NCBI GenBank assembly: GCA_016201275.1
Contig: JACQDB010000104.1
Coordinates: forward strand, 1 to 64,000
Direction: 5' to 3'
DNA from: Acidobacteriota bacterium
GTDB taxonomy: Bacteria; Acidobacteriota; Blastocatellia; UBA7656
DNA length: 64,000 nt
Shown here: positions 12,833 to 19,017 of the stretch, piece after piece
Position numbering within the stretch: the first letter of the stretch is position 1
Layout of the letters: each line of letters opens with the position of its first letter
Program-made: the position numbers and the translations under genes
The notes under the pieces: generated by a model
Databases searched by the model: none
What the model saw: the letters and a program-made list of their open reading frames with translations, nothing else
What the model was told of the DNA's origin: nothing

Positions 12833-12933
12833 GCCTAAATGGCGACCAGCGATAAGCATCGTGCCGTTTGCAAAGCAGCGGCTCTCTGCATCTCTGATCT
12901 CTGCAACGGAGAATTTTCTGTTTGCTAGAGGCA

Positions 12934-12951
12934 ATTCTATAAGGGTAGAAT
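12934..12951. promoter_or_regulatory. ATTCTA-N6-TAGAAT palindrome before the DUF2318 module
   Basis: A perfect 6+6 inverted repeat stands 30 bp before the small Cys-protein gene, in a position suited to an operator. The regulator is unknown; the call rests only on symmetry and position. Confidence 0.35.
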
Positions 12952-12980: not shown

Positions 12981-13376
12981 ATGATGAAGCGCTTTCTACA
13001 AATTATTTTGATCGCTGCGCTCCTGAGTGGAGCGGCGTCTCAGGCATTCGCGTGCGCGGCGATGAGGCCAATGGACGGGCATAGCTGTTGTCGGAATCTG
13101 GTTTATAAAAGTAGCTCACAAAAATTTCGTTCTCTACCAACCTCCCCTCAAGAGCCGGCACAAACTCCAGACTGCTGCAAATCCCATCCCCTCGGTTCAG
13201 CGCAACCGGCAGCCGAGAATCACCGTTTTACCGTAGCCGTTTCGGGTTTACTTGCCAATGGCAACAATAGCGAAACGGGTCTCCTACAGAAATATCGGCT
13301 TTCCCCAATCCCGCTGCAATCGCCGCCGCGATCTTCGCTACCGTACTTTATTCGTAACTGCACAATCCTGATTTAA
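12981..13376 (+). CDS. Small secreted Cys-pair protein
   Basis: The 131-aa protein has a signal peptide (RFLQIILIAALLSGAASQAF), then CAAMRPMDGHSCCRN and later TPDCCKSHP. The two Cys-Cys pairs with nearby His and Met suggest metal or heme-like binding; the rest is Ser/Pro rich. Similar small 'GHSCC' proteins accompany metal-handling genes in this phylum, as far as I recall. I start at the ATG at 12981 (MMKRF); the longer frame overlaps the YfhO gene. It precedes the DUF2318-ABC genes by 430 bp, so co-function is plausible but not shown. Confidence 0.65.
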   Translation: MMKRFLQIILIAALLSGAASQAFACAAMRPMDGHSCCRNLVYKSSSQKFRSLPTSPQEPAQTPDCCKSHPLGSAQPAAENHRFTVAVSGLLANGNNSETGLLQKYRLSPIPLQSPPRSSLPYFIRNCTILI

Positions 13377-13809
13377 CCTCAACTTCCAAATTACTCCGGT
13401 CGCCAAGGCATTCGTGTCCTGGAATCTTGTCTCTATTTGCGGACTTGTTCGGCCTTGGTTTTTATTCAATAGCTTCTGTGCCGGTTGCCAGTTTGGTACG
13501 AGAGCAAGAGAAATGAGATTGAGCAAACCCTCATGGCAGTATCAATCATTCCCACTAGCGATGAAGGCGCGAGCTAGTACAGCAATGGGTTTGCGGGTCT
13601 GCGTTGTTGCAGTGTGGTTGCCGCCAAGCCGAACAAAGGCTGCGACGATTTCTCTACCAGAGAAACAAACACCGGCGAAGTACGAAACCATAAAAGCGAG
13701 GCGCAACGAGGCGCGTATCGCCCAGACCACGAACGACAACAGAATGGCGGGGTTGAATGGTAGTTGTAGAGTTGACGGCTTCAACCTCTCAGCATATTCG
13801 AGGGAAAAA
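13377..13809. other. Gene-free stretch before the DUF2318 gene
   Basis: Open frames cross this region on both strands, but none has a start signal or a recognisable domain. No repeat or terminator seen. Confidence 0.4.
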
Positions 13810-14382
13810 ATGAACAACGAAGAGGAATTGACGAAACACGATGACAGCGAGAGCAAGACGCGGTTAGAGAACAAGAGAGCGCTATTTCTGGATCGCAAGC
13901 AACCGAGAAAGCGGCTCCCGTTTTGGGCGGTGCTTGTGCTTCTGGCTAGCGTGGGGACGGTCGGATATTTCGTCGTGCGAAATGCCCGTAGCGCGCCAAC
14001 CGCAAGCCCCGTAACGAAAAGCCAAAATCCGGGCGCTCCAGCCATCCGCATTCCCATCGCTGACCTAGCCCTTGGCAAAGCAAAATTCTTTGATTATCGG
14101 CTTAGTAACAACACGCCGGTTCGGTTTTTCGCCGTCAAGAGTTCCGATGGAAATTACCGCGCCGCGATGGATGCTTGCGAGGTCTGCTTTCATGCAAAGA
14201 AAGGCTATCGTCAAGAAGGCGATGACATGGTGTGCAACAACTGCGGCAAACACTTTCCCCTTACCCGCGTTGGCGAAATCAACAACGGTTGCCATCCCAT
14301 CGGCTTGCAGCGCACCGTCGAAGGCGAGCAATTGGTGATTCAAGCGAGCGAGTTGGAGAGTCGCGGACATTATTTTCGATAG
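13810..14382 (+). CDS. DUF2318 Fe-S-type membrane-anchored protein
   Basis: The 190-aa protein has a charged head, one membrane helix (LPFWAVLVLLASVGTVGYFV, ~36-56) and a periplasmic domain. That domain has a DUF2318 signature: ACEVCFHAKKGYRQEGDDMVC and CNNCGKHFP, a pair of CxxC motifs, then GCHPIGL. In Campylobacter Cj1660 and relatives this protein sits in the FTR1/P19 ferrous-iron uptake locus, between P19 and FtsX-like permeases. Here the permease and ATPase follow directly (42 bp, then 14 bp), giving the same order. The ATG at 13810 follows AGGGA; upstream frame is non-coding in character. Confidence 0.8.
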   Translation: MNNEEELTKHDDSESKTRLENKRALFLDRKQPRKRLPFWAVLVLLASVGTVGYFVVRNARSAPTASPVTKSQNPGAPAIRIPIADLALGKAKFFDYRLSNNTPVRFFAVKSSDGNYRAAMDACEVCFHAKKGYRQEGDDMVCNNCGKHFPLTRVGEINNGCHPIGLQRTVEGEQLVIQASELESRGHYFR

Positions 14383-14424
14383 GGCGAACCGGCGCTACAG
14401 CAGGTTGACCGGGGAGGTGACAAA

Positions 14425-15675
14425 ATGCGAATCAGCAGCATCGCCTTTGCAAATTTGAAACGGCGCAAAGGCAAAGCCTTATTCTTAATCGTAGGGATCG
14501 CCATAGGCATCGGCACAGCCATCGCGTTGGTGACCCTGAGTGCTTCGATTACCGAAGAGATCGGCACGCAGCTTGATCGCTTCGGAGCCAACATTGTCGT
14601 CGTGCCGCAAGCCAACAGCCTGTCTCTTGATTATGGCGGCGTGTCGGTGTCGAGCGTCTCTTTCGATGTGCAACAACTACGCGATGAAGATGCCAAAAAC
14701 GTGCGTGATATTCCATACAAGGAGCGCCTGAGCATCATTTCGCCGAAACTCTTGGGGGCAGTGAAGATTGCCGACCAAGAAGTGCTGCTTGCCGGAGTTG
14801 ATTTCAAAAGTGAATTGCTGTTGAAAAGCTGGTGGCAGATCACCGGAGAGGAACCGCAAGGCGAGCGCGATGTACTGGTCGGCTATGAAGCGGCAAGGGC
14901 GCTTTCTTTGATTGAGTCCACTGGTGAGATGGCGACGCAGAAACCCATGAATCATGCTCAGATGGATTCAACCAGTCCTAGCCTAGAGGCCGAGCCATTC
15001 AAAATTATTCAGCCACGATTGCTGATTGCCGGAAGCGAACATCGCGTTGCCGGAGTGCTGGCACCAACGGGGGCACCCGACGACCGCATGGTCTTTGCGC
15101 CTTTAACGCAGGTGCAGGCAATGTTGAAAAAGCCTGGCGAGTTGAGTGTGATTGAGGTGAGCGCGCTGTGCAAGGACTGCCCGGTGGCGGACATCGTTGC
15201 ACAGATTGCCGAACGCCTGCCTCAGGCCAGAGTGTCAGCCATTCAGCAATCCGTGCGTGCGCGCACCGCAACCGTCGAACGCTTGACCCGCTTTGCGACA
15301 GTCGTGGCCGCGCTGGTTTTGGTGATCGCCGCCTTGATGATCTTTACCAGCATGACCGCTTCCATCCTTGAACGCACCAAGGAGATCGGCGTGTTGCGCG
15401 CCATAGGCTTTCGCAAAAGCCACATCATCAAAAGTCTGCTGATCGAGGTCGGCGTGATCAGCGTTATTGGCGGACTTCTCGGTTGGGCGGCTGGAATGCT
15501 TGCCAGTGTCATCGCCCTGCCCTATTTCGCTGAAACCCAGATCGCCATACCAATCCGCGCCGAACTCCTGGTGGGCGCGCTGGGGGCGGGTTTATTGGTG
15601 GGCATCTTGAGCAGTCTCTATCCAATTATCAGTGCGGCGCGGCGCGATCCCGCCGAGTCGGTCAGAGCCATTTGA
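14425..15675 (+). CDS. FtsX/MacB-type ABC transporter permease
   Basis: The 416-aa protein has an N-terminal helix after FANLKRRKGKALFLIVGIAI (~8-27), a large extracytoplasmic domain (~45-275) and three C-terminal helices with the FtsX signature TKEIGVLRAIGFRKSHI (~315-331). This is the mechanotransmission type of ABC protein, which moves periplasmic partners rather than pumping through the membrane. The periplasmic domain has one Cys pair, ALCKDCPVADI (~248). Cj1661/1662 in Campylobacter are two such permeases; here there is one. GGGGAGG precedes the ATG. It is coupled to the ATPase gene 14 bp downstream. Confidence 0.9.
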   Translation: MRISSIAFANLKRRKGKALFLIVGIAIGIGTAIALVTLSASITEEIGTQLDRFGANIVVVPQANSLSLDYGGVSVSSVSFDVQQLRDEDAKNVRDIPYKERLSIISPKLLGAVKIADQEVLLAGVDFKSELLLKSWWQITGEEPQGERDVLVGYEAARALSLIESTGEMATQKPMNHAQMDSTSPSLEAEPFKIIQPRLLIAGSEHRVAGVLAPTGAPDDRMVFAPLTQVQAMLKKPGELSVIEVSALCKDCPVADIVAQIAERLPQARVSAIQQSVRARTATVERLTRFATVVAALVLVIAALMIFTSMTASILERTKEIGVLRAIGFRKSHIIKSLLIEVGVISVIGGLLGWAAGMLASVIALPYFAETQIAIPIRAELLVGALGAGLLVGILSSLYPIISAARRDPAESVRAI

Positions 15676-15689
15676 CGAGGTGAAGAGTT

Positions 15690-16376
15690 ATGTCATTTAT
15701 CGTGATTGAGGCAGTCAGTAAAACCTATCAAGCGGCTGCCGGAGAAGCGGCGGTAACGGTGCTTGAAGAAGTGAGCGCGGAGCTTGAAGCAAGTGAATTC
15801 GTCTGCTTGATGGGGCCTTCGGGTTCCGGCAAGAGTACGTTGCTGACGATTGTCGGTGCCATGAATCGTCCGACAACCGGCACCGTCAGCGTGGACGGAA
15901 TTGATGTCTATGCGCTTGCCGATGAACGGCGCGCCGATTTTCGGCGCGAATACCTCGGCTTTGTGTTTCAGCAGCATCATCTGTTGCCTTATCTAAACGC
16001 TCTGGAAAATGCCCTGCTGCCGCTTGCGGTTTCTTCCCGGCCAACCACACAGAAACGCGAACGCGCCTTGTCCGTACTGGAACGAGTCGGACTTGCCGAT
16101 AAAGCCAAGCGCCTTCCCAACCAGCTATCCGGGGGAGAACAGGGACGCCTGGCCATCGCCAGGGCTTTGGTAAATGAGCCGCCTCTACTGCTCGCCGATG
16201 AACCAACGGGAGCGCTAGACAGCAAAACCGGGCGCGAAGTGATGGAAGTCTTTTTGACGCTGAACGCGCAGGGGCAGGCTATCTTTATGGTGACGCACAA
16301 TGCTGAAAATGCAGCGCTCGCGGATCGCGTCATTCATCTGCAAGACGGGCATATTGTTTACGGAGCCTCGGTGTAG
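15690..16376 (+). CDS. LolD/MacB-type ABC transporter ATP-binding protein
   Basis: The 228-aa ATPase drives the permease encoded just upstream. It has Walker A GPSGSGKST (~46-54), a Q-loop in FVFQQHHLLPYLNALEN (~96), signature LSGGEQGRLAIARAL (~148), Walker B LLLADEPTGALD (~168) and the H-loop VTHN (~203). These place it in the small MacB/LolD/FtsE family that partners FtsX-like permeases. The signature has G-R where most have Q-R, a minor variant. AGGTGAAG precedes the ATG. Confidence 0.95.
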   Translation: MSFIVIEAVSKTYQAAAGEAAVTVLEEVSAELEASEFVCLMGPSGSGKSTLLTIVGAMNRPTTGTVSVDGIDVYALADERRADFRREYLGFVFQQHHLLPYLNALENALLPLAVSSRPTTQKRERALSVLERVGLADKAKRLPNQLSGGEQGRLAIARALVNEPPLLLADEPTGALDSKTGREVMEVFLTLNAQGQAIFMVTHNAENAALADRVIHLQDGHIVYGASV

Positions 16377-16475: not shown

Positions 16476-17618
16476 ATGATGAGTGGAAAAATCAGAGAAG
16501 GAACACCGCTGGTCAAACCTGCGCTGCTATTTTTTAGCGTCGTACTAATCTCCATCCTGCATTACAAAACCACTGCAGGCGGCGACCTATTATTGCACGA
16601 AATCTCACAAAAACTTTATTACCTGCCCATTGTTTATGCGGCCTATGTGTTTGGATTGCGGGGCAGCCTCATCCTGTCTTTGATGAGCGGCGGGGTCTAT
16701 TTTCTGCACATCTCAGGGCATTGGCATGGCACGCAACCGGAAATCCTCAATCAATATGCGGAAGTCTTTATGTTTCAGGTCGTCGGTCTGGTTACCGGCT
16801 TGCTCGCCCGCGCTGAAAAAAAGCAGCGGGTTCGGTTTGAAAAAGCCTCTGCCAAATTGGCGATTGCCTATGAGGAATTGAAGAGTACGGTCAATCTGTT
16901 GATTCGTGCGGATCGCTTGAAGTCGGTCGGCGAAATGGCCGCCGCCATCGTGCATGAAATCCGCAACCCTTTAGGGGCGATTAAAGGTGCGGCGGAGATC
17001 ATCGAAAAAGATATTCCCCTTGAGAGTCCACGGCGGAAATTTCTCGTCGTGATTGAAAAAGAAGTTGATAGATTGAATCGCCTGGTGCTGGAGTTCTTAA
17101 ATTTCGCCAAACCGCGTCAGCCTCATAAAGCGCCTGCCAATCTAAACAGTTTGATTCAATCCGTGGTCACGCTACTGGCAAAGGAAGCGGCAAAAAAAGA
17201 GGTCGAGTTAGCGGTGCAACTTGATGAACAACTGCCTACCCTATGGGTGGACGCAGATCAAATCCGGCAAGTTCTGGTCAACCTCATCCTCAATGCGATC
17301 CAAGCGATGCCCAACGGCGGAAAAATAGAGATTAAGAGTTTCCGGTTAGGAGAAGAGGTCGAACTGAGCGTCCGTGATTTTGGCGTGGGCATAGACGCCA
17401 CAATAAAGGACAAAATCTTTGATCCCTTCTTCACCACCAAATCGGAAGGCTCCGGCTTAGGATTATCTATCGCTTATCAACTCGTCAAACAACATCAAGG
17501 CGAGATCAGCATAGCGGAGATAGTCGGCCCCGGTACGCTGTTTCTGGTGCGCTTGCCGATAGCACCGCAGGCCGTAGCCAGTGAATTGATGCGTGTGGAA
17601 GAGAGCCTGAGCAAATGA
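16476..17618 (+). CDS. Sensor histidine kinase of the NtrB/AtoS type
   Basis: The 380-aa kinase has about four membrane helices (~12-110) with almost no periplasmic loop, so it may sense a membrane signal. A coiled linker (~112-150) leads to the dimerisation domain with the phospho-acceptor His in IVHEIRNPLGAIKGAAEII (~160). The ATPase domain shows the N-box NLILNAIQAMPNGG (~268), G1 DFGVGID (~306) and G2 GSGLGLSIA (~327). It lies 19 bp before a sigma-54-dependent response regulator, a standard NtrB-NtrC arrangement. Whether the pair controls the DUF2318-ABC genes upstream or the metal locus beyond is not visible. Confidence 0.92.
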   Translation: MMSGKIREGTPLVKPALLFFSVVLISILHYKTTAGGDLLLHEISQKLYYLPIVYAAYVFGLRGSLILSLMSGGVYFLHISGHWHGTQPEILNQYAEVFMFQVVGLVTGLLARAEKKQRVRFEKASAKLAIAYEELKSTVNLLIRADRLKSVGEMAAAIVHEIRNPLGAIKGAAEIIEKDIPLESPRRKFLVVIEKEVDRLNRLVLEFLNFAKPRQPHKAPANLNSLIQSVVTLLAKEAAKKEVELAVQLDEQLPTLWVDADQIRQVLVNLILNAIQAMPNGGKIEIKSFRLGEEVELSVRDFGVGIDATIKDKIFDPFFTTKSEGSGLGLSIAYQLVKQHQGEISIAEIVGPGTLFLVRLPIAPQAVASELMRVEESLSK

Positions 17619-17637: not shown

Positions 17638-19017
17638 ATGAGCAAGCAAAAGCAAATTTTATTCGTTGAAGATGAACAATCGTTGCGGCAGATTTTTCAG
17701 TATCGCCTGCACGAAGCGGGCTACGCAGTGCTGTTGGCAGAGGACGGGGTACGCGGTTATGAAGTGCTGGCGCAGAGCCAACCCGATCTGGTGATTACCG
17801 ACCTAGCCATGCCGGAGATGAATGGTTTGGAACTGCTCAGGCGCGTCAAAGCGATCTCGCCCGACACGCCCGTCATCGTCTTGACGGCACACGGAGAAGT
17901 GCAAACGGCAGTCGCGGCGATGCGCCTGGGCGCGGCAGATTATTTAACCAAGCCGCTTGAATGGGACGAGCTTTTGATTGTCATTGACCGCGCTTTACGC
18001 CTGAAAGATTTGACCCGCGAGAATCGGGAACTGCGCGCCTTTATTGAGGAGAGATTTCAATTAAACAACATTATAGGGACTTCCAAGCGGATGCGGGAAT
18101 TGTATGATGTGATCGAACGAGTCGCCAGAACCGATATTTCTGTGCTGCTATTGGGAGAGAGTGGAACGGGTAAGGAACTGGTGGCAAAAGGCATCCATCA
18201 CCACGGAAAACGCAGCAACCGTGCCTTTGTCACCATTGATTGCGGCGCGATCCCCGAACCCTTACTGGAAGCCGAATTGTTTGGCCATCGCAAAGGCGCT
18301 TTCACCGGGGCGACTTATGATAAGCGCGGCCTCTTTGAAGAGGCTGCCGGGGGAACGGTCTTTCTTGATGAGATCGGTGAACTCCCGCTCAATCTGCAAG
18401 TCAAGCTGCTTCGCGTGCTGCAAAACGGTGATTTTTTAAGACTGGGAGAAACCACCCCGCGCCACGTAGATGTCAGAATCATAGCGGCAACCAACCGTGA
18501 CCTGGCAAAAATGGTTGAAGATGGCACCTTTCGTGAAGACCTCTATTTTCGGCTCAACATCGTGCCGATAAAATTACCTCCGTTACGGGCGCGCCGAGAA
18601 GATATTCCCCTGCTGGTGAGCAGCTTTCTCGACGACGCCGGCAAAAAGTATGAGCGGCCTGGTTTGCAGATTGCCAAGGAAGTCTATTTATACTTTCACC
18701 AGTACCCGTGGCCGGGCAACGTCCGCGAGTTAAAAAACCTGATCGAACGCCTGGTGGTTTTGACCAGTACCGAGGTGATCACCGCAGAAGATTTGCCGGA
18801 AGAGATCAAGCGCATACGCAACGCAGCGGGCAGCCTCTCCTTTAATTTGCCGGAAGACGGGATTGATCTCGAAGAGGTTGAAAAGGAGATCATCAAGCAG
18901 GCGTTAGATAAAAATAATTGGCATCAAACGCGCACCGCTCAATACCTCAACATCACGCGAAATACGCTGATCTATCGAATGCAGAAATACAGTTTGAGCG
19001 AGCCTCACAAAAGTTGA
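17638..19017 (+). CDS. Sigma-54-dependent response regulator, NtrC family
   Basis: The 459-aa regulator has a receiver domain with acidic pocket VEDE (10-13), phospho-Asp 55 ([12 protein letters not shown]) and Lys in LTKPLEW (~105). The AAA+ domain has Walker A GESGTGKE (~172) and the sigma-54 contact loop GAFTGA (~220). Walker [10 protein letters not shown] and the arginine-finger region lie between ~240 and 310. The C-terminal Fis-type helix-turn-helix ([20 protein letters not shown]) binds enhancer sites. Phosphorylation by the upstream kinase would switch on sigma-54 promoters. I found no clear TGGCAC-N5-TTGC promoter in the intergenic regions scanned by eye. Confidence 0.95.

What the first reader, a model, noticed from the sequence alone, without database searches (positions are those of the whole stretch)
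12981..16376. DUF2318-permease-ATPase module without FTR1 or P19
Seen: the order DUF2318, FtsX-like permease, LolD-like ATPase, preceded by a secreted Cys-pair protein and an ATTCTA-N6-TAGAAT palindrome. Known: in Campylobacter and relatives these genes follow FTR1 and P19 in iron uptake. Inference: here the module serves another metal-reducing or relay system, with the small Cys protein possibly replacing P19.
Basis: partly seen in the sequence, partly recalled or inferred. Interest (0 to 1): 0.52.

Follow-up and report, generated by a model that had tools for sequence, protein, structure and literature searches.

The report
Copper-linked cousin of an iron-uptake module
A small gene set once read as a broken-off piece of a bacterial iron-uptake system is instead a distinct, widespread version that often sits beside copper and silver handling genes, with a signature cysteine pair in its transporter that the iron version lacks.

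Summary
Order: secreted Cys protein, DUF2318/FtrD-like protein, MacB/FtsX-type permease, ATPase. Neither FTR1 nor P19 is found anywhere in the genome. The palindrome is real but has no support as an operator. A survey of two phyla splits PF10080 loci into two kinds. Long PF10080 proteins carry FTR1 in the same ORF or beside it (32 of 34). Short ones, such as the window's, never do (0 of 80). Of 58 short loci with an adjacent permease, 57 have an A-[LFY]-C-x2-C-P motif in its periplasmic domain; 0 of 30 long loci do. Metal genes (Cus RND, HMA, HMBD, metal P-type ATPase, multicopper oxidase) lie near 30 of 58 short but 2 of 34 long loci (p = 3.6e-6, relatedness not corrected). The window's Cys protein has a paralogue in the same genome, and a homologue in a sister genome, heading multicopper-oxidase operons. 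The predicted DUF2318 domain has a Rieske fold with cysteines in place of the usual ligand pattern. Best reading: an ATP-driven periplasmic copper/silver thiol relay, not FetMP iron uptake. Metal, direction and mechanism are inferred; nothing was assayed.

The parts
12922..12951 (+). possible sigma-70-type promoter TTGCTA-18-TAGAAT; the palindrome ATTCTA-N6-TAGAAT (12934-12951) overlaps its -10
   Evidence: single exact copy in the genome, not seen in L017; weak
12981..13376 (+). small secreted Cys-pair protein (131 aa), putative metal-binding partner
   Evidence: no Pfam/NCBIfam match; homologue heading copper-type operon in L017 (32% identity) and paralogue in own genome L098
13810..14382 (+). 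short DUF2318/FtrD-like protein, 190 aa: one N-terminal TM helix, then a predicted Rieske-fold domain with CxxC-CxxC-C (C123, C126, C142, C145, C161)
14425..15675 (+). MacB/LolC-type FtsX permease, 416 aa
15169..15180 (+). codons of the periplasmic CxxC (C249-K-D-C252, followed by P253), signature of the short-type permease
   Evidence: 15 of 15; 57 of 58 short, 0 of 30 long; invariant in 36 chosen for it; periplasmic loop before a helix
15690..16376 (+). LolD/MacB-type ABC ATPase
16476..17618 (+). sensor histidine kinase, possibly co-regulated
   Evidence: the same kinase plus NtrC-type regulator order follows the module on pPRO1
17638..19017 (+). sigma-54-dependent NtrC-type response regulator, possibly co-regulated
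   Evidence: an NtrC-type regulator also precedes the Cys-protein paralogue in L098

Best explanation
The window carries a copper/silver-type version of the DUF2318-FtsX-ATPase module. Inferred working: a small secreted Cys-rich protein (elsewhere an HMA-domain protein) binds Cu(I)/Ag(I) in the periplasm. The membrane-anchored, five-cysteine Rieske-fold domain accepts the metal or electrons. The MacB/LolC-type permease, through its periplasmic CxxC and ATP-driven movement, resets that thiol site or releases the metal to export or detoxification partners (CusCBA, P-type ATPase or multicopper oxidase where these are neighbours). Shown by computation: gene order, absence of FTR1/P19 matches, the invariant cysteines, the permease signature, the enrichment of metal genes, the predicted fold. 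Inferred: which metal, the binding, the redox step, the direction of transfer.
For: FTR1 absent from 11 of 11 Acidobacteriota genomes holding a short module with adjacent permease and present in 26 of 26 holding the long protein. 57 of 58 short loci against 0 of 30 long loci carry the periplasmic CxxC (the exception L182 is a 165-aa fragment). Metal genes near 30 of 58 short and 2 of 34 long loci. HMA gene directly upstream in 17 of 58. Pelobacter plasmid pPRO1: metal-sensitive regulator, metal P-type ATPase, HMBD, HMA, DUF2318, FtsX, ATPase, M23, kinase, sigma-54 regulator, TolC, adaptor, CusA in one stretch. Sister genome G002 (L017): Cys protein, OEP-HMBD, multicopper oxidase-HMBD, P-type ATPase, DUF2318, FtsX, ATPase. 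Own-genome paralogue of the Cys protein heads cytochrome c/OEP and multicopper oxidase-HMBD. Model: domain pLDDT about 96; every one of the 50 rows listed by VIA-align is a Rieske-domain protein or complex, best Z 9.6 over 101 residues. PMC4938975 (passage) puts DUF2318 and HMA-DsbD_2-DUF2318 proteins in a predicted CsoR copper regulon of gut Firmicutes.
Against: No HMA, HMBD, Cus, metal P-type ATPase or multicopper oxidase gene was detected in the first 26 kb of the window, so the metal link for this copy is by homology. 28 of 58 short loci have none of these genes in the fetched stretch; 12 have neither them nor a Cys-family hit. The loci are related by descent, so the p-value is optimistic. 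The link between the window's Cys protein and the Desulfobacterota ones is weak (profile-profile probability 62%, 13 columns; profile E 0.63 for the window). The kinase-regulator association is not significant (7 of 58 against 1 of 34, p = 0.25). Foldseek E-values are modest (best 2.3e-3, none under 1e-3). MacB-type permeases are not known to me to transport metal ions.
Confidence: 0.6

Rival explanations
1. A pared-down iron-uptake (FetABCD-like) module that delivers reducing power to another iron permease encoded elsewhere.
For: Same domain family and gene order as fetABCD, for which single deletions of fetA, fetB, fetC or fetD hurt growth under low iron in C. jejuni (PMC10783030, passages).
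Against: No FTR1 or P19 match in the genome; most short forms are separated from the long ones by a fully supported branch and differ in the permease CxxC; metal-efflux neighbours.
Confidence: 0.15
2. Copper delivery for cuproenzyme maturation (as NosL-NosDFY serves N2O reductase; recalled) rather than detoxification.
For: Multicopper oxidase (L017, L098) and cupredoxin/YtkA genes (L023) among neighbours.
Against: Cus RND genes, HMA genes, metal P-type ATPases and a plasmid resistance-like cluster are the commoner neighbours.
Confidence: 0.15
3. A MacB-like exporter of a copper-binding peptide or lipoprotein, with DUF2318 only as a redox or structural accessory.
For: The permease resembles MacB, LolC/LolE and similar structures; the small Cys proteins are secreted-looking peptides.
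Against: No MacA-type adaptor next to the module in the window; the leader-like N-terminus of the Cys protein suggests Sec export; the invariant CxxC points to thiol or metal chemistry.
Confidence: 0.08

Closest known systems
FetMP-FetABCDEF / P19 iron uptake (Campylobacter jejuni 1649-1656)
   Same: DUF2318 domain with CxxC, CxxC and C; FtsX-type permease; ATPase
   Different: No FTR1 or P19 found, no thioredoxin next to it; one permease, not two; DUF2318 protein short with one TM helix; permease with periplasmic CxxC; metal-efflux neighbours in relatives
CsoR-regulated DUF2318 and HMA-DsbD_2-DUF2318 proteins of gut Firmicutes (PMC4938975, passage)
   Same: DUF2318 linked with HMA domains and a copper regulator
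   Different: There DsbD_2 is the membrane partner; here an FtsX-ATPase pair with a periplasmic CxxC
MacB / LolCDE-type ABC transporters
   Same: Permease fold and MacB/LolD-like ATPase
   Different: Invariant periplasmic CxxC and a DUF2318 partner; no adaptor adjacent in the window
Rieske ferredoxins
   Same: Predicted fold, Z 9.0-9.6 for the ten best rows
   Different: CxxC...CxxC plus a fifth Cys instead of the recalled CxH...CxxH; membrane anchored

Membership tests
FetMP-FetABCDEF / P19 iron uptake | FTR1-family permease (FetM) | tested here: not met
   0 matches in the own genome; the same search rings in the E. coli control
FetMP-FetABCDEF / P19 iron uptake | P19/FetP periplasmic iron protein | tested here: not met
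   0 matches in the own genome
FetMP-FetABCDEF / P19 iron uptake | DUF2318 domain | tested here: met
   PF10080 E 3.5e-28
FetMP-FetABCDEF / P19 iron uptake | two FtsX-type permeases plus ATPase | tested here: not met
   one permease, one ATPase
FetMP-FetABCDEF / P19 iron uptake | thioredoxins FetE/FetF downstream | tested here: not met
   next genes are a kinase and a sigma-54 regulator; genome-wide not tested
FetMP-FetABCDEF / P19 iron uptake | Fur box and iron regulation | not tested
   -
Copper/silver-associated short DUF2318 module (defined here) | short DUF2318 protein without FTR1, next to an FtsX permease with periplasmic CxxCP | tested here: met
Copper/silver-associated short DUF2318 module (defined here) | HMA or Cys-rich secreted protein upstream | tested here: met
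   Cys protein 12981-13376; homologues in L017 and L098
Copper/silver-associated short DUF2318 module (defined here) | copper/silver export or oxidase genes adjacent (frequent, not universal) | tested here: not met
   none detected in window 1-26000; present near 30 of 58 short loci
Copper/silver-associated short DUF2318 module (defined here) | copper or silver binding or induction | not testable with these tools
   needs assays
Rieske proteins | Rieske fold | tested here: met
   predicted model only
Rieske proteins | CxH...CxxH cluster ligands | tested here: not met
   CxxC...CxxC in 33 of 33 aligned domains
MacB/LolC-type ABC permeases | four-TM permease with large periplasmic domain and MacB/LolC fold | tested here: met
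   predicted model
MacAB-TolC pumps | adjacent MacA-type adaptor | tested here: not met
   no such neighbour

The most novel reading that the evidence does not exclude
DUF2318 is an all-cysteine member of the Rieske fold that holds a metal or a redox centre. In this branch it works with a MacB-type permease whose periplasmic beta-CxxC-alpha-beta element resembles the copper loop of HMA domains. Together they would form an ATP-driven copper/silver thiol relay, a new job for this class of ABC transporter, shared by Acidobacteriota and Desulfobacterota.
Probability: 0.35. Interest if true: 0.8.

Novelty: new variant of a known kind. Interest (0 to 1): 0.6.

Why it matters
A 2018 paper stated that DUF2318 genes 'almost always' lie with the iron-uptake cluster (PMC6083913, passage). 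This survey finds a second, well-separated branch without FTR1 and with metal-efflux neighbours, so annotating DUF2318 genes as iron uptake will often mislead. It gives concrete cysteines to mutate (two in the permease, five in the DUF2318 domain), a fold to test, and a way to learn what the ABC part does in the iron system, whose function its authors call unclear.

Tried and rejected
Palindrome as a regulator site: single exact copy in the genome, overlaps a possible -10, not seen in L017. Not pursued.

GTG 13414 as start of the DUF2318 gene (322 aa): rejected in favour of ATG 13810 by homologues.

Sequence search of solved structures with the DUF2318 profile: nothing better than E 0.16, zinc-ribbon-like ribosomal proteins. 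No Rieske protein appeared by sequence; only the fold comparison shows it.

Kinase-regulator association: not significant.

One family for all small Cys proteins: only weakly supported. The Desulfobacterota profile was built from 16 of the proteins that it then finds, so only its other hits count: L148, L157, L099, L100, L140, L056, L159, L139 and a second ORF in L142. 0 of 34 long loci were hit.

Rows left out of the counts: L026 (same contig stretch as L014); L070/G274 (below the family cut-off, no DUF2318 ORF found); the 3.3-kb loci L001-L013, L030-L052 and L101-L130. Of the places listed I fetched 60 (40 high-ranking short, 8 long, 12 further). Of the 74 places I fetched 38 wide, besides those already fetched. 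Neighbours were labelled by phmmer with seeds from Pfam-scanned proteins; not every neighbour was scanned with Pfam.

Literature: DUF2318 (4 papers); COG4393 (0); Rieske + FtrD (0); copper/FtsX/CusA/Geobacter, FtsX-like permease with copper terms and Rieske fold with CXXC terms (0) gave listings only, none describing this module by title; two searches gave listings too. I saw passages of PMC10783030, PMC6083913, PMC8238504, PMC4938975 and PMC7970244, no whole paper. The library lacks most subscription journals.
Full report
What is there. It has one PF10080 gene and no match to FTR1 or P19.

Two kinds of DUF2318 locus. PF10080 occurs in 73 of 396 sampled genomes of the phylum and in 99 of 395 of the phylum of G420, a Desulfuromonadales MAG that holds L027 (I call that phylum Desulfobacterota). 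I examined 114 loci. Of 34 with a long PF10080 protein, 26 carry FTR1 in the same ORF, 6 have an FTR1 ORF nearby and 2 (L176, L177) have neither. Of 80 with a short protein none has FTR1 nearby. Genome-wide, FTR1 is in 26 of 26 Acidobacteriota genomes with the long protein, in 0 of 11 with the short protein next to a permease, and in 2 of the other 12 short-type genomes (G208, G412; both far from the locus). P19 is in 1 of 49 (G062). The three genomes behind L027-L029 and plasmid pPRO1 also lack FTR1. In the domain tree 72 short rows sit beyond one branch with support 100; a long-branched group around L058 and L179-L184 falls elsewhere, with a warning about long branches (quick tree, few columns).

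A signature in the permease. 58 of 80 short loci have an FtsX-type gene next to the DUF2318 gene. In 57 it carries A-[LFY]-C-x2-C-P at one place in the periplasmic domain; the exception is a 165-aa fragment (L182). None of 30 long loci with permeases has a CxxC in the compared stretch (residues 150-330) (motif count). In the window it is C249-K-D-C252-P. The permease model (mean pLDDT 86.9) puts it in a loop after strand 242-247 and before helix 254-264, followed by strand 268-272, outside the predicted membrane helices. That beta-CxxC-alpha-beta order is like the metal loop of HMA domains (recalled; an analogy). By fold the permease is MacB/LolC-like.

Neighbours. Genes for HMA, HMBD, Cus RND pump or adaptor, metal P-type ATPase or multicopper oxidase were detected near 30 of 58 short loci with permease, 5 of 22 short loci without and 2 of 34 long loci; Fisher p = 3.6e-6 for the first against the last, not corrected for relatedness. 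An HMA gene lies directly upstream in 17 of 58. The clearest cases are pPRO1 of Pelobacter propionicus, L017, L014 and L024 and L023. Pfam scans of chosen neighbours.

The Cys protein. No library searched knows it. Its homologue in L017 stands first in OEP-HMBD, multicopper oxidase-HMBD, P-type ATPase, DUF2318, FtsX, ATPase. Its paralogue in the same genome (L098) heads a cytochrome c/OEP gene and a multicopper oxidase with HMBD, preceded by a kinase and an NtrC-type regulator. A phylum search found it in 4 of 396 genomes, two of them weak (E about 7e-4) and heading Cus-type operons. Many Desulfobacterota short loci have a comparable small Cys-rich protein upstream, but descent from a common ancestor with the window's is not shown.

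The DUF2318 domain. Five cysteines are invariant in 33 of 33 aligned domains. The model of the window's protein is confident for the domain (pLDDT about 96). Its nearest solved folds are Rieske ferredoxins and Rieske subunits: Foldseek best E 2.3e-3; VIA-align Z up to 9.6 over 101 residues, rmsd 3.0. The first and third cysteines are 19 residues apart; in a Rieske-like protein met by chance in L024 (CTH...CPCH) the two ligand cysteines are 18 apart (my count output). So I read DUF2318 as a Rieske-fold domain with an all-cysteine site. What it binds is unknown. The C. jejuni papers note the CxxC motifs and do not mention Rieske.

How it most likely works. See Best explanation. The step from 'beside copper genes' to 'handles copper' is by association. 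For this window copy the evidence is indirect: relatives, the Cys paralogue and the permease signature; no metal gene was detected in window 1-26000.

Against what is known. The iron system fetMP-fetABCDEF has the same domain set, and its authors leave the role of the ABC part open. A 2016 metagenomic study already placed DUF2318 proteins in a predicted copper regulon of Firmicutes, so the DUF2318-copper link is not new as such. I found no print mention of the FtsX-ATPase form with copper genes, the permease CxxC or the Rieske fold in the searches; the library is incomplete.

Noticed in passing
L014 (5589-7781), L024 (11508-13661, minus): Fusion of a Na+/H+-exchanger-like domain with a transglycosylase SLT domain beside Cus genes and short DUF2318 genes in two genomes.
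   Followed up: no
L059, L060, L064-L066, L068, L069: Stand-alone short DUF2318 proteins without a permease; several have lost one or both CxxC pairs.
   Followed up: partly
L029 (2916-3875), L150, L160, L179-L183: The gene upstream of DUF2318 joins an HMA or zinc-ribbon start to a stretch that looks SurA-like (judged by eye).
   Followed up: no
L176, L177: Long DUF2318 proteins (445 aa) with two permeases and ATPase but no FTR1 in the fetched stretch, in genomes that also hold the short module.
   Followed up: partly
window 13377-13809: 433-bp gap between the Cys gene and DUF2318; in L017 three metal genes stand at this place, so a deletion is possible.
   Followed up: no
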